Of a DNA stretch of 64,000 nucleotides, positions 7,966 to 29,300 are shown one piece after another (position 1 is the stretch's first letter; every line of letters begins with the position of its first letter). Source of the DNA: Bacteroidia bacterium (GTDB lineage Bacteria; Bacteroidota; Bacteroidia; B-17B0; Aurantibacillaceae); assembly GCA_026003255.1 (NCBI GenBank), contig BPGX01000002.1, positions 450,330 through 514,329 on the forward strand, in the 5' to 3' direction. The notes beneath the pieces are model-generated. The model saw nothing but the letters and a program-made list of their open reading frames with translations. It had not been told where the DNA came from and ran no database searches. The translations under genes were made by a program, and so were the position numbers.

Positions 7966-7995
7966 TACATTTGAATTCCTAAGTTTATAAAAATG

Positions 7996-8349
7996 TGGAC
8001 CCGCTCCGAATCGAACGGAGGTCCAAGTAAGCAATGAGTAAGTTTTCTACAGGTTTAGTGTTCACTTTCGCATTCGGTACAAAGCAAGCAGAACACCGCT
8101 TATACTTTGTACCTATCCGCTGGTAGTCATCTTTCGTAGCGGAGTCCGAAAGATGCTCTGTCTCTTTCCGACGCCTTACACCTTTCGCCAGACAGAAGGG
8201 CTAAAGGGAAGACGGGCTGCAGCTATTAGGCAGCCAAAGCGAAGTTAGATTCGCCATTTAAGTTTTGGAGACGAGATTTAAGAGCATTGTCCCCATTGCT
8301 CTACCTGCTTACTTACCCATTGTTCTTACTGTCGAAACCTTTCGGGCCC
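7996..8349 (-). ncRNA. ssrA: transfer-messenger RNA (tmRNA)
   Basis: The 5' end GGGCCCGAAAGGTTTCGAC and the 3' tRNA-like end (T arm GGTTCGATTC-like, then CGGGTCC) form a 7-bp acceptor stem with one G-U pair, followed by discriminator A; CCA is not encoded. The tag frame runs from 8255 to 8226: GESNFALAA followed by TAA TAG. It rescues stalled ribosomes with SmpB and tags the product for Clp proteolysis. A promoter lies upstream (8376-8406), which leaves a leader of about 20 bases to be trimmed by RNase P. The IS30 fragment begins about 30 bases beyond the 3' end, and no clear terminator is seen between them. Confidence 0.95.
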
Positions 8350-15733: not shown

Positions 15734-15806
15734 GATTCCGTAGCTCAGCCGGTAGAGCATTACACTTTTAATGTAAGGGTCCCGGGTTCGAGTCCCGGCG
15801 GAATCA
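15734..15806 (+). tRNA. tRNA-Lys (anticodon TTT)
   Basis: 73 bases. The acceptor GATTCCG pairs with CGGAATC, the D arm is GCTC-AGCCGGTA-GAGC, the anticodon stem TTACA/TGTAA encloses CTTTTAA, and the T arm is CCGGG-TTCGAGT-CCCGG. Discriminator A; CCA is not encoded. Followed at once by a terminator. Confidence 0.97.
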
Positions 15807-23859: not shown

Positions 23860-24486
23860 ATGTTTTTTCTTCAAACCCCTGTTTTACTTTATCAAAAGCT
23901 ATTTCCTGAAGCGATATTTCAACTCAAGCATCCCAATCAAATTGCGCTCACTTTTGATGATGGGCCTATTCCAGAAGTAACAGAATTTATTCTGGATGTT
24001 CTTAAAAGTTATCAAATACCTGCTACATTTTTTTGTGTAGGCCACAACATTATTAAGCATAAAAAAATTTTTGATAGAATATTAAACGATGGACATAGTG
24101 TAGGTAATCATACTTTTTCTCACATTAATGGATGGAAGTGTTCTTTGAATAGATATTTAGGTGATGTCAATCAATTTGAAAAAATTTATTCTACTTCTTT
24201 TTTTCGTCCGCCTTATGGTAAAATTAAAAAAAGTCAATATAATGAATTGCTGAAAAGAAACTATAAAATTGTTTTTTGGAGTATTATCAGTTACGATTAT
24301 CATTCTAAAATGACTGAAAATAAGTGTAAGAAATTACTTGAAAATCAAACTACTGGCGGGCAAATAGTTTTATTTCATGATAGTATAAAGTCCTTTCGTC
24401 TAATTTCTAAAATTTTACCACAATATATAGAATTTTGTCATAGTTTAAATCTTACCTTTGTGCCGCTCAAAAATTCTTTACTATGA
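23860..24486 (+). CDS. NodB-type polysaccharide deacetylase (CE4)
   Basis: 208 residues with the full CE4 motif set: LTFDDGP (catalytic base and metal aspartates), GHSVGNHTFSH (metal histidines), FFRPPYGKIK (oxyanion arginine), DYHSK and QIVLFHDS (catalytic histidine). No signal peptide is evident, so it may be cytoplasmic or membrane-associated through the N-terminal TPVLLYQKLF segment. It removes N- or O-acetyl groups from a polysaccharide or peptidoglycan. It overlaps the next gene by 4 bases (ATGA). Confidence 0.85.
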   Translation: MFFLQTPVLLYQKLFPEAIFQLKHPNQIALTFDDGPIPEVTEFILDVLKSYQIPATFFCVGHNIIKHKKIFDRILNDGHSVGNHTFSHINGWKCSLNRYLGDVNQFEKIYSTSFFRPPYGKIKKSQYNELLKRNYKIVFWSIISYDYHSKMTENKCKKLLENQTTGGQIVLFHDSIKSFRLISKILPQYIEFCHSLNLTFVPLKNSLL

Positions 24487-24818
24487 AAAAGTTTATTTTT
24501 CTTTCAATATTATCTGTATTATTAGTATTGTTTTCATGTAAAAGTAATGTTGTGGAAACTCAGGTGCATGTATGGGGTGTGTGTGATCTATCAAAATCTA
24601 AAATTGATAGTGCAGCCAAATTAGAAGGTGTTGTTAAAGCAGATTGGGATAAAGAAACCCGATTACTAACATTAGAGTTTGACAGTACAAAAGTTTCATT
24701 GGATAATATCCTGAAAAATGTGGCTATGGCTGGATTTGACAACGAACGTTATTTTGCGGATGATTATGCGTATGAACAACTTCCCGATGAATGTAAATAC
24801 GAAAGAAGAGAAGAATAA
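24483..24818 (+). CDS. lipoprotein with heavy-metal-associated-like fold
   Basis: 111 residues. The signal peptide and lipobox are KKFIFLSILSVLLVLFSC. The rest, VHVWGVCDLSKSKIDSAAK ... GVVKADWDKETRLLTLEFD ... VSLDNILKNVAMAGFDNERY, follows the beta-alpha-beta pattern of HMA domains, but the metal motif is reduced to one cysteine (GVCDLSK), with a second late in the protein (DECKYE). Periplasmic copper handling is possible. Translationally coupled to the deacetylase. Confidence 0.65.
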   Translation: MKKFIFLSILSVLLVLFSCKSNVVETQVHVWGVCDLSKSKIDSAAKLEGVVKADWDKETRLLTLEFDSTKVSLDNILKNVAMAGFDNERYFADDYAYEQLPDECKYERREE

Positions 24819-25981: not shown

Positions 25982-26782
25982 ATGTCTGATTCAAAAATAA
26001 AAATAACTGCCGTAAATTATTTAAATACGTTTCCTTTTAAGTACGCGCTTGAAAAATTTGCAAATCAGGTAGATTGGGCTGAAATTAATTATGCCGCACC
26101 TGCCGAATGTGCTCAAATGCTAATAAATAATGAAACCAATCTCGCTTTAGCACCCATCGCTGTTTTAGCAAAACAACCCAATTTAAACATAGTTACGAAT
26201 TTTTGTTTATCAACATTTAATGAAGTCAAATCTGTAAAACTATATAGCAAAAAATCTATTGAAGACATTCAAACTATTGTATTGGATTATCAATCACTTT
26301 CTTCTGTTTCTTTAATAAAAGTATTAATGAAATACTATTGGAAAAAATCTGTTCGATACCTTCAAGGATACAAGGGATTTGAAAACAAATTATCAGCCGA
26401 TGCAATGGTAGTGATTGGAGATAGAACGTTTGAATTGAATGGAAAATTCCCGTATGAATATGATTTAGCCACAGAATGGTATCGTTATTATGGAAAGCCC
26501 TTTGTATTTGCTGGCTGGATTAGTAATGTCATTTTGAAAGATTCTTATTTACAGCAACTAAACACTATTTTTGATTATGGTCTCCAACATCTTGATGAAG
26601 TAATTGATTATGCTATGCAAAATCATTCTCTTTCTGGTAAGCGGTTGAATAAGGAAATTATTGCAGATTATTTGACAAACAAAATGCACTATCGTTTGAC
26701 GAATGACCGAAAAGAAAGCATTGAACATTTTTTACATCTGCTGAAAAAATTAGAAACAGAGAAAAGTGTTGTAGATTTTTAG
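25982..26782 (+). CDS. mqnA: chorismate dehydratase, futalosine menaquinone pathway
   Basis: 266 residues. The N-terminus ITAVNYLNTFPFKYAL and YAAPAECAQMLINNETNLALAPIAVL match MqnA, which makes 3-enolpyruvyl benzoate from chorismate as the first step of the futalosine pathway. VVIGDRTFELNGKFPYEYDLATEWYRYYGKPFVFAGW is a family block. Together with the UbiA-type gene at 40213-41076 (mqnP) it shows this organism makes menaquinone by this route. The next gene may supply a nucleosidase. Confidence 0.85.
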   Translation: MSDSKIKITAVNYLNTFPFKYALEKFANQVDWAEINYAAPAECAQMLINNETNLALAPIAVLAKQPNLNIVTNFCLSTFNEVKSVKLYSKKSIEDIQTIVLDYQSLSSVSLIKVLMKYYWKKSVRYLQGYKGFENKLSADAMVVIGDRTFELNGKFPYEYDLATEWYRYYGKPFVFAGWISNVILKDSYLQQLNTIFDYGLQHLDEVIDYAMQNHSLSGKRLNKEIIADYLTNKMHYRLTNDRKESIEHFLHLLKKLETEKSVVDF

Positions 26783-26790
26783 TTTGAATT

Positions 26791-27636
26791 ATGTTGCCCA
26801 AACTATTTGTATTTGCCTATTCTGAAGAGGCACAGCCGTTTTTAGCTATCTACCCATCTAAAACTTTGTTTCAACTTAAAAACATTCAATGTTTATTAAA
26901 TGAAAAAGAAAATATTTATACACTGATTGCTGGCAGCGGCTTTGAAAATGTTGTTGTGGCATTAAGTGTTTTTTTTGAAAGATTTCACCATTTAAAGAAT
27001 AACATAATTTGCTTTAATATCGGCATTGCTGGAAGTTATGGAAAATCGCTTTACTCTATACACTATGCCTCTAAAATCACAAACTATCATACATTAAAGA
27101 GTTTTTATCCAGATATTTTCATAAAAACAGCAATGTCAGAATTGATAAGCATCTCCTTTCCAGCAGATAGAAAAATTATGAAACAATATCCTGAAGCATT
27201 GTTTGATATGGAAGCATATTCTTATGCAACTACTTGTCGATATTTTGTCAAGAATCATCAAATACATTGCATTAAATTTGTAAGTGATAACGATGGAAAA
27301 ATTTCAGATATGTTTTATTTATTAGAACAATATGAAAATAAAACAAAGGATATTTTGAACCTTGTTCAACAAGTTGAACAAAAGGTAGAAAAATTTTTTA
27401 CATATAAAATATCAAAAAACATTGATACAAGTTTCCTTCAAGAATTTTCAAGAAAAATGCACCTCACGTTTTCTCAACAAAATCAATTAAACAAAGCCAT
27501 TCAATTTTATCTGCATCAACATACCAATGAAGATATAGAAAATATTCTTAATTCTGATTTAAGTGCAGAAATAACATCTAAGAAAGAAAGAAATCAACAT
27601 TTTCAACAACTATTGAATAAACTTTACAATGTTTAA
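26791..27636 (+). CDS. nucleoside phosphorylase/nucleosidase-like protein
   Basis: 281 residues. IICFNIGIAGSYGKSLYSI and ALFDMEAYSYATTCRYF are the phosphorylase-superfamily blocks (nucleoside-binding glycine loop and the DMEAY ribose-binding glutamate seen in MTA/SAH nucleosidases and futalosine hydrolase). The last 90 residues are an extra helical, Gln/Asn-rich extension. It may be a divergent MqnB or a nucleosidase for 5'-deoxyadenosine released by the radical SAM enzyme encoded next. It overlaps that gene by 8 bases. Confidence 0.65.
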   Translation: MLPKLFVFAYSEEAQPFLAIYPSKTLFQLKNIQCLLNEKENIYTLIAGSGFENVVVALSVFFERFHHLKNNIICFNIGIAGSYGKSLYSIHYASKITNYHTLKSFYPDIFIKTAMSELISISFPADRKIMKQYPEALFDMEAYSYATTCRYFVKNHQIHCIKFVSDNDGKISDMFYLLEQYENKTKDILNLVQQVEQKVEKFFTYKISKNIDTSFLQEFSRKMHLTFSQQNQLNKAIQFYLHQHTNEDIENILNSDLSAEITSKKERNQHFQQLLNKLYNV

Positions 27637-28618
27637 ACATCTGGTATATATTGAAGAAAAAATTGCCAGAGATTCTTCCACCAAAAAGATTTTAGAAAAA
27701 CTACAACCTTCGGAAATTGTTTACATTCAACACTACAAAGAAGTATTAAATCAAACCAATAGTCACTGGTTATTCAATAAAGAGCACCAAAAAATCATTT
27801 TAGCCAAACGAGAAAGTGAGTTCTATTACAAAGGTTCTTATCTTACACCAACTTTTGGTTTTAAACATTTTTATTACAATGCATTAGCCATCAATTGTTT
27901 GTTTCATTGTGAATACTGCTATTTACAAGGAATGTATAACACTCCACATCTTGTTTTATTCTTAAATAATCAGGATTTTATCAATGCTATTCAACAATTC
28001 ATTCATCTTAATAACGAAAAAATATATTTAGCACTCTCGTATGATACGGATTTATTGGCTTTAGAACAATACTATCCATATTGTAAGGAATGGATTCAAT
28101 TCGCCAACAACGAACCTCGTTTGACTATTGAAATTCGCACAAAATCTCATCAGATAGATTTACTCAACACTATTCAACCCAACGACAATGTTATATTAAG
28201 TTTTACGCTTTCACCTGAAGAAATTCAAAAAAAATACGAACCCTTCACACCAAAATTAGAACAACGAATAATTGCTGTGAAAAAGGCAATTGATAAAGGT
28301 TTTCGTGTGATGATTTGCATTGACCCAATGATTTATTCATCCAGTTATCAAAGTATTTACTCTAAATTTCTTGACTATCTTTTTGAACAAGTTTCACCTA
28401 AACACATACACGCTGTATCAATTGGTGTATTCCGAATGAACAAAGATTTCTTCAAACGCATCAAAAAAAATGGTAATAACTCGGATATTTATTATTACAA
28501 TTATGAGATAGAAAATAAAATGGTTTCGTATTCACCAGATATTCGTCGGGAAATGATTATGTTTGTACAAAATATATTGACTCAAAAAGGCATAAAGAAC
28601 ATCCATATTTATGATTAA
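27629..28618 (+). CDS. spore photoproduct lyase-like radical SAM protein
   Basis: 329 residues. The start YIEEKIARDSSTKKILEKL resembles SPL-family N-termini, and NCLFHCEYCYLQGMYNT is the C-x3-C-x2-C iron-sulfur motif of SPL-type radical SAM enzymes, followed by LALSYDTDLLALEQ, LTIEIRTKSHQI and NVILSFTLSPEEI. SPL reverts the spore photoproduct thymine dimer in spore formers; Bacteroidota do not form spores, so the substrate here is open. It is fixed between a nucleosidase-like gene and an SDR gene by 8-base overlaps on both sides. Confidence 0.75.
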   Translation: MFKHLVYIEEKIARDSSTKKILEKLQPSEIVYIQHYKEVLNQTNSHWLFNKEHQKIILAKRESEFYYKGSYLTPTFGFKHFYYNALAINCLFHCEYCYLQGMYNTPHLVLFLNNQDFINAIQQFIHLNNEKIYLALSYDTDLLALEQYYPYCKEWIQFANNEPRLTIEIRTKSHQIDLLNTIQPNDNVILSFTLSPEEIQKKYEPFTPKLEQRIIAVKKAIDKGFRVMICIDPMIYSSSYQSIYSKFLDYLFEQVSPKHIHAVSIGVFRMNKDFFKRIKKNGNNSDIYYYNYEIENKMVSYSPDIRREMIMFVQNILTQKGIKNIHIYD

Positions 28619-29300
28619 ATACATTTTATTGACAGGACATAGTAAAGGTTTGGGAAAATCAATTGCAGAAAAACTATTAACACAACCAGATTTCCATATC
28701 GTTGGGATTTCCAGAACATCCGCAGGTTTTAATAGCACTAATTTTACAGAGATTTTAGCCGATTTATCCGACGTTCAGCAAGTTTTTAATTTACAACACC
28801 AATTAAAAAAATATTCTTTTCATACCATCCTATTGAATGCAGGAGCAAATTCCATAAAACCACCCGAGTCCTATAAATTACAAGAAATACAGAACATTAT
28901 TCAACTCAATTTTACATCCAATGCCTTAATTTTAAGAATGTGTTTGAATTCTATTCTTCAAAATAAAGGACATATTATTGGAATCGGCAGTTATTCTGGA
29001 TTAGAAATAAAGAAGTGGAATAATTTTTATGGTGCTGCCAAAAGTGGCTTACATCATTTGCTTCGCAATCTTTTTGAACAATACAGAAAACAAGGTATAA
29101 AAGTAAGTATTGTGATTCCAGACATTATGAATTCTGAATTTTACAAACATCAGGAATTTGAACCAGTAGAAGACGCTCAATATTCCTTGCAGGTCAACGA
29201 TATTGCTGAACTTATTTGCAGTTGGATAATCCAACCACCGACTTATGTTCCGTTTGAAATCATATTACGACCTCAACAATTTCAATTGAAAAAAAAGTAA
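28611..29300 (+). CDS. short-chain dehydrogenase/reductase
   Basis: 229 residues. The nucleotide motif LLTGHSKGLGKSIAEKL, then LNAGANS, then a serine (IGIGSYSG) and YGAAK complete the SDR catalytic set. NAD(P)-dependent oxidoreductase, substrate unknown. The start overlaps the end of the SPL-like gene by 8 bases, so the three genes 26791-29300 form a tight coupled set. Confidence 0.8.
   Translation: MIKYILLTGHSKGLGKSIAEKLLTQPDFHIVGISRTSAGFNSTNFTEILADLSDVQQVFNLQHQLKKYSFHTILLNAGANSIKPPESYKLQEIQNIIQLNFTSNALILRMCLNSILQNKGHIIGIGSYSGLEIKKWNNFYGAAKSGLHHLLRNLFEQYRKQGIKVSIVIPDIMNSEFYKHQEFEPVEDAQYSLQVNDIAELICSWIIQPPTYVPFEIILRPQQFQLKKK

What the first reader, a model, noticed from the sequence alone, without database searches (positions are those of the whole stretch)
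26791..29300. Overlapping trio: nucleosidase-like, spore-photoproduct-lyase-like radical SAM, SDR
Three genes are joined by 8-base overlaps. An SPL-type enzyme in a lineage without spores is unexpected. Radical SAM enzymes can release 5'-deoxyadenosine, and a nucleosidase of the MTA/SAH type could clear it, so pairing of the two has a chemical logic. The long C-terminal extension of the nucleosidase and the SDR partner are not explained by known SPL systems. Could be a DNA- or nucleotide-repair module.
Basis: partly seen in the sequence, partly recalled or inferred. Interest (0 to 1): 0.7.

Follow-up and report, generated by a model that had tools for sequence, protein, structure and literature searches.

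The report
Nucleosidase–SPL-like radical SAM–reductase module
Three overlapping genes encode a radical enzyme shaped like the DNA-repair enzyme of bacterial spores, a nucleosidase and a reductase; the same set recurs in very different bacteria, most of the evidence points to metabolism rather than UV repair, and we found no description of it.

Summary
Among 80 loci fetched by similarity to the radical SAM protein alone, 76 have the nucleosidase directly upstream and 60 the SDR downstream, across Bacteroidota, Clostridia, Sulfuricurvum and Thermodesulfobacteria, while other neighbours change. Three loci fuse nucleosidase and radical SAM. The nucleosidase is not MqnB: the genome has its own MqnB beside MqnD. 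It is an MTAN-fold hydrolase (catalytic Glu/Glu/Asp in 80 of 84 homologues) with an extra helical tail. The radical SAM protein has the full spore-photoproduct-lyase fold (Z 33.9) but forms a separate, deeply diverged family. It lacks the lesion-flipping hairpin, is acidic on average where true SPLs are basic, and in the window lacks both known hydrogen-donor cysteines. DNA photoproduct repair is therefore unlikely. Best model (inferred): the enzyme consumes SAM and releases a 5'-substituted adenosine (an adenosyl adduct or 5'-deoxyadenosine), the nucleosidase removes adenine, and the SDR reduces the resulting sugar, the logic of HpnH-HpnG-reductase in hopanoid synthesis. The substrate is unknown. 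I found no description of this module in the open-access papers searched.

The parts
26791..27636 (+). Nucleosidase (281 aa): MTAN/PNP-UDP fold core, residues 1-200, plus C-terminal helical domain
   Evidence: AF2 mean pLDDT 93.3; best structure match MTAN CT263, Z 22.2 over 182 residues
26827..26829 (+). Codon of Glu13, equivalent of MTAN Glu12
   Evidence: invariant in 41 aligned homologues; 80 of 84 have Glu13+Glu141+Asp166
27208..27213 (+). Codons of Met140-Glu141, ribose-binding motif of MTAN (Met173-Glu174)
27286..27288 (+). Codon of Asp166, equivalent of MTAN Asp197
27391..27633 (+). C-terminal helical extension of the nucleosidase, residues 201-281; kept in two homologues whose catalytic core has decayed (L061, L062)
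27629..27636 (+). 8-base overlap nucleosidase/SPL (ATGTTTAA); same 8-base overlap in the other Bacteroidota loci
27629..28618 (+). SPL-like radical SAM protein (329 aa)
   Evidence: PF20903 71 bits; profile hit to SPL structures E 1.2e-23; AF2 pLDDT 94.7; Z 33.9, 318 residues, to SPL 4k9r
27845..27847 (+). Codon of Thr73 at the position of the alternative H-donor Cys (C. acetobutylicum SPL C74, Gt S76): Cys in 42 of 56 homologues, Thr in all Bacteroidota, Ser in Sulfuricurvum
27896..27919 (+). CX3CX2C cluster motif C90-C94-C97 with Tyr96 (Tyr98 follows)
28040..28042 (+). Codon of Tyr138 at the position of B. subtilis SPL Cys141 (Tyr in 94% of the family)
28316..28318 (+). Codon of Cys230, near-universal (54 of 56) family-specific cysteine; Ile, Leu or Met in canonical SPL
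28611..28618 (+). 8-base overlap SPL/SDR (ATGATTAA)
28611..29300 (+). Short-chain dehydrogenase/reductase (229 aa) with intact GxxxGxG, Ser127, Tyr140, Lys144 and family C-terminus RPQ..(R/Q)(I/L)..RK

Best explanation
The trio is one metabolic module acting in the order radical SAM, nucleosidase, reductase. Shown: the genes form a conserved, often overlapping and sometimes fused set; all three window proteins keep their catalytic residues (cluster cysteines; Glu13/Glu141/Asp166; Ser127/Tyr140/Lys144). Inferred: the SPL-like enzyme cleaves SAM as a consumed co-substrate and releases a 5'-substituted adenosine, either an adduct of the 5'-deoxyadenosyl radical to an unsaturated acceptor (quenched by a protein hydrogen donor, perhaps Cys230) or 5'-deoxyadenosine itself. 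The MTAN-type nucleosidase hydrolyses off adenine, and the SDR reduces the resulting sugar (5-substituted ribose) at C1. The helical tail docks or stabilises the radical SAM partner. I lean to the adduct version, because its logic is that of HpnH-HpnG (adenosylhopane, then ribosylhopane, then reduction) and MqnE-MTAN/MqnB. The acceptor is unknown.
For: Conserved order NUC-SPL(-SDR) in several phyla with changing flanks. NUC-SPL fusions in L047, L052, L057. Where the SDR is not adjacent, a close orthologue lies elsewhere in two genomes (L142, L143: 319 and 272 bits). Distances of the three proteins are correlated (rho 0.65-0.80, 0 of 500 permutations as high). MTAN catalytic set in 80 of 84. 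Relay residues of SPL that allow SAM regeneration are not kept: the Cys141 position is Tyr, the alternative Cys is Thr in Bacteroidota and Ser in Sulfuricurvum, and Tyr99 is Phe in 11 of 56; in B. subtilis SPL, C141A or Y99F leave no SAM regeneration, so one SAM is consumed per turnover (PMC3742179). DNA-binding features lost. The nucleosidase is retained in 23 genomes that also have a general MTAN, which favours a dedicated role. Precedent HpnH-HpnG-reduction: PMC12583986.
Against: No substrate is identified and no assay exists. 20 of 80 loci have no adjacent SDR, and 11 of 14 such genomes tested have no close copy elsewhere at E 1e-30. Four homologous nucleosidases have lost catalytic residues, so this step can be dispensed with or complemented; all four, and the genome without an adjacent nucleosidase, have a general MTAN, which fits simple 5'-deoxyadenosine clearance equally well. 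SPL itself is a DNA enzyme, and in one thermophilic clade an EndoQ-family gene is adjacent.
Confidence: 0.45

Rival explanations
1. By-product clearance only: the radical SAM enzyme does an unrelated reaction, the nucleosidase merely removes inhibitory 5'-deoxyadenosine, and the SDR disposes of 5-deoxyribose (for example to 5-deoxyribitol) or acts on the main product.
For: 5'-dAdo inhibits radical SAM enzymes and MtnN is needed for biotin synthase in vivo (PMC8102628, PMC6302742). The window genome has no MTAN over the TIGR01704 cut-off and 35 of 58 trio genomes with an intact nucleosidase lack one. The catalytically dead or missing nucleosidases all lie in genomes with a general MTAN (5 of 5 against 23 of 58), though this is not corrected for relatedness and MTAN is common in that clade.
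Against: The nucleosidase is kept, overlapped or fused even where a general MTAN exists; other radical SAM enzymes rarely have a private nucleosidase (own knowledge).
Confidence: 0.3
2. Nucleic-acid or nucleotide repair module: the SPL-like enzyme reverses a base lesion other than spore photoproduct.
For: Full SPL fold; SPL family; EndoQ-family endonuclease directly upstream in seven loci of a thermophilic clostridial clade.
Against: Lesion hairpin absent; canonical basic residues R111, R171, R194 and K310 not kept; mean net charge -2.2 against +8.3 in canonical SPL (the window protein itself is +4). Many carriers are dark-living gut anaerobes. Canonical SPL coexists in several genomes. EndoQ adjacency is one clade and may be one event.
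Confidence: 0.15
3. MqnB of the futalosine pathway: an mqnA-mqnB pair with two unrelated genes behind it.
For: mqnA (25982-26782, PF02621) ends 8 bases upstream of the nucleosidase in the window and lies next to it in its nearest relatives.
Against: No match to TIGR03664 at E 1e-3; a true MqnB (159.5 bits, cut-off 124.7) sits beside an MqnD-like gene at G000:C15; outside the nearest relatives mqnA is not the neighbour.
Confidence: 0.03

Closest known systems
Spore photoproduct lyase (SplB; PF20903, TIGR04070)
   Same: Full-length fold, CX3CX2C motif, Tyr97/Tyr99 equivalents, Glu207, Arg216, Lys175, Pro236 and Tyr247 equivalents kept
   Different: Separate clade on a very long branch; 79 bits against a 400-bit cut-off; no Cys141; no alternative Cys in Bacteroidota; no lesion hairpin; acidic on average; partners are a nucleosidase and an SDR
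HpnH-HpnG (adenosylhopane synthase and its nucleoside phosphorylase-family partner)
   Same: Radical SAM enzyme paired with a putative phosphorylase that removes adenine, followed by a reduction (PMC12583986)
   Different: The radical SAM protein is of the SPL family, not HpnH; substrate unknown; the comparison is of logic, not homology of the radical SAM part
MqnE with MTAN/MqnB (futalosine menaquinone pathway)
   Same: Radical SAM adenosylation followed by an MTAN-family nucleosidase (own knowledge)
   Different: No MqnE homology beyond the radical SAM fold; the genome has a separate MqnB beside an MqnD-like gene
MTA/SAH nucleosidase (MTAN, Pfs)
   Same: Fold and catalytic Glu/Glu/Asp
   Different: Shortened middle region, extra helical C-terminal domain, below TIGR01704 cut-off, near-constant neighbour of the SPL-like protein

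Membership tests
Spore photoproduct lyase | SPL fold with radical SAM CX3CX2C cluster motif | tested here: met
   Z 33.9 over 318 residues, next fold 15.9; motif invariant
Spore photoproduct lyase | NCBIfam equivalog score (400 bits) | tested here: not met
   79.3 bits; canonical members in Clostridia mostly score above 300 against PF20903, this type below 80
Spore photoproduct lyase | H-donor cysteine at Bs C141 or Ca C74 | tested here: not met
   Window: Tyr138 and Thr73; 42 of 56 homologues do have Cys at the C74-like column, which MAFFT aligns across a short insertion
Spore photoproduct lyase | Tyr97 and Tyr99 of the radical relay | tested here: met
   Tyr96 and Tyr98 in the window; the Tyr98 column is Phe in 11 of 56 homologues
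Spore photoproduct lyase | Lesion-recognition hairpin (Gt R304/Y305 region, conserved K302..G304..G307) | tested here: not met
   Columns are gaps in 89-98% of the family
Spore photoproduct lyase | Repair of 5-thyminyl-5,6-dihydrothymine | not testable with these tools
   needs an assay
MqnB futalosine hydrolase | TIGR03664 score above cut-off | tested here: not met
   no match at E 1e-3; true MqnB elsewhere in the genome
MTAN-type nucleosidase | Fold and catalytic Glu12/Glu174/Asp197 equivalents | tested here: met
MTAN-type nucleosidase | TIGR01704 equivalog score | tested here: not met
   no match at E 1e-3 for the window protein; L018 homologue 21.1 bits, cut-off 73.8
HpnH/HpnG pair | Radical SAM partner belongs to the HpnH family | tested here: not met
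   only SPL models hit at E 1e-3
SDR superfamily (classical) | GxxxGxG cofactor motif and Asn/Ser/Tyr/Lys catalytic residues | tested here: met
   G9, G13, G15, S127, Y140, K144 invariant, N100 nearly so
Known anti-phage system | PADLOC model match | tested here: not met
   no hits for the three proteins

The most novel reading that the evidence does not exclude
An SPL-fold radical SAM enzyme has left DNA repair and catalyses 5'-deoxyadenosylation of an unknown metabolite, with a private nucleosidase and reductase completing a three-step route to a new polyol- or ribosyl-bearing compound found in gut Clostridia and in Bacteroidota.
Probability: 0.3. Interest if true: 0.8.

Novelty: new variant of a known kind. 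Interest (0 to 1): 0.6.

Why it matters
Characterised SPL-family members known to me repair one DNA lesion. A widespread sister family in non-sporulating and gut bacteria, tied to its own nucleosidase and reductase, implies either a new metabolite route or a dedicated way to handle 5'-deoxyadenosine, whose fate is still poorly known. It also warns that 'spore photoproduct lyase' annotations in such genomes are probably wrong in function.

Tried and rejected
MqnB identity: rejected. Spread by phages: viral contigs gave no relative. Anti-phage system: no PADLOC hit. A larger operon: 43 neighbouring proteins scanned gave 64 Pfam families, none in more than two members; the clearest recurrent extra neighbour is the EndoQ-family gene in one clade. 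'No Cys141, therefore not an SPL' was dropped as too simple, because most clostridial canonical SPLs also lack it and carry the alternative cysteine (PMC5368176). The link between dead nucleosidase and general MTAN was kept only as a weak hint, because the dead cases are few and most are in a clade where MTAN is common. A known fold for the nucleosidase tail was not found, but the tail was not searched alone, so its fold is open. Papers on SPL together with nucleosidases in gene clusters: none relevant. The NAR 2012 SPL structure paper was not held, so residue roles come from PMC3742179, PMC5368176 and own knowledge.

Full report
Observation. The overlaps are ATGTTTAA and ATGATTAA, 8 bases each. 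mqnA (PF02621) ends 8 bases before the first gene and rimO follows the last. Pfam assigns SPL to the second and adh_short to the third; the first has no Pfam match of its own.

The trio is a real, recurrent unit. In a search of 60 genomes of the window's relatives, 5 (own genome included) carry the radical SAM gene. All five have the same order NUC-SPL-SDR, with an 8-base NUC/SPL overlap, although the flanks differ. A scan of 84,980 species genomes with a profile of the radical SAM protein alone returned 80 loci from Bacteroidota, Clostridia (many Lachnospiraceae), Sulfuricurvum, Thermodesulfobacteriaceae and Spirochaetaceae. Scored with profiles of the two partners, 76 of 80 have the nucleosidase directly upstream, two more (L061, L062) have a decayed remnant, one has almost no upstream sequence (L082) and one has none (L067); 60 of 80 have the SDR downstream. 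Three loci encode NUC-SPL as one polypeptide (L047, L052, L057). Apart from an EndoQ-like gene in one clade, neighbours are not conserved across the family: 43 flanking proteins gave 64 Pfam families, none in more than two. Where the SDR is not adjacent, two of 14 genomes have a close orthologue elsewhere (L142, L143). Pairwise distances of the three proteins are strongly correlated, as expected if they descend together; shared ancestry alone also gives such correlation.

The nucleosidase. Its profile finds MTA/SAH nucleosidases in the PDB, and its model (pLDDT 93.3) matches MTAN CT263 at Z 22.2 over residues 1-197. The catalytic Glu13, Glu141 and Asp166 are all present in 80 of 84 sequences; the four exceptions are L061, L062, L063 and L065. 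It is not MqnB: the genome has a TIGR03664 MqnB (159.5 bits) immediately beside an MqnD-like gene at G000:C15, plus a second, broken MqnB-MqnD copy at C1. The genome has no MTAN over the TIGR01704 cut-off (the assembly is 89.6% complete). Residues beyond about 205 form a helical domain that MTANs lack. In L061 and L062 this tail survives although the catalytic core is gone, so the tail has a function of its own, most simply docking to the radical SAM protein (inference).

The radical SAM protein. The model (pLDDT 94.7) matches SPL over 318 residues at Z 33.9; the next radical SAM fold is at 15.9. Yet a tree separates this family from canonical SPL by a very long branch, and canonical SPL and this type coexist in several clostridial genomes. 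I aligned 56 family members with 31 SPL relatives of high score. The cluster cysteines and Tyr97 are invariant in both, and Tyr99 is kept in 80% of the family. The Cys141 position is Tyr in 94% of the family, but that is not decisive: most clostridial canonical SPLs also lack Cys there and have it at the C74 position, the documented alternative donor (PMC5368176; compare the S76C structure 4rh0). The family has Cys at that column in 42 of 56, but Thr in all ten Bacteroidota and Ser in the four Sulfuricurvum. So the window protein has neither known hydrogen donor. A new cysteine, Cys230, is in 54 of 56. The lesion-flipping hairpin is deleted. Canonical basic residues are replaced, and mean net charge falls from +8.3 to -2.2, mean pI from 9.0 to 6.7; the window protein is at +4, so this is a family trend, not absolute.

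What it does. In B. subtilis SPL, C141A or Y99F leave no SAM regeneration, so one SAM is consumed per turnover (PMC3742179). Natural loss of the relay in this family, next to an MTAN-type hydrolase, fits a SAM-consuming enzyme whose adenosyl product is cut by the partner. Two versions remain. In the first the product is an adduct of the 5'-deoxyadenosyl radical, as in HpnH, whose partner HpnG removes adenine before the ribose is reduced (PMC12583986). In the second the product is free 5'-deoxyadenosine, an inhibitor that must be cleared (PMC8102628). In both, an SDR acting on the ribose aldehyde is chemically sensible. For the adduct version: the nucleosidase is kept or fused even in 23 genomes with a general MTAN. 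For clearance: the five genomes with a dead or missing nucleosidase all have a general MTAN (5 of 5 against 23 of 58). The latter is weak, because four of the five belong to a group in which MTAN is usual.

Against repair. Many hosts are rumen and gut anaerobes (titles). The only repair-like context is an EndoQ-family gene (TIGR00375; the EndoQ name is own knowledge) immediately upstream in seven loci of thermophilic Clostridia; the five of them placed in the tree form one clade, so this may be a single event. I keep repair at 0.15.

Verdict. Real, conserved and, in the open-access papers I could search, undescribed. It works like a radical SAM plus nucleosidase plus reductase pathway; it is an SPL homologue by fold but fails tested features of SPL membership; the nucleosidase is MTAN-like, not MqnB.

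Noticed in passing
L013, L018, L020, L026, L031, L037, L043, directly upstream of the nucleosidase: An EndoQ-family (TIGR00375) PHP protein of about 400 aa lies from 38 bases overlapping to 38 bases before the nucleosidase in one thermophilic clostridial clade that lacks the SDR.
   Followed up: partly
G000:C1:194886-195489 (L093:1459-2976): A second MqnB gene split into two overlapping frames, followed by a second MqnD-like gene; may be a decaying duplicate, a sequencing error or a contaminating contig (assembly contamination 5.3%).
   Followed up: no
window 24483-24818: Small lipoprotein-like protein with a weak CopZ/MerP-type match in which the metal motif has a single cysteine (GVCDLSK).
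   Followed up: no
L096, L110 (Acetivibrio alkalicellulosi): The canonical SPL lacks cysteine at the Bs C141 position (Ser) and an extra C-terminal SPL fragment lies 2 kb away; the genome also has the trio-type protein.
   Followed up: no
L061:4221-6002: Nucleosidase remnant without catalytic residues in one frame with the SPL-like domain, tail retained; L063 and L065 are separate dead nucleosidases.
   Followed up: partly
window 7993-8349 and 15734-15806: tmRNA and a tRNA gene found by Rfam.
   Followed up: no
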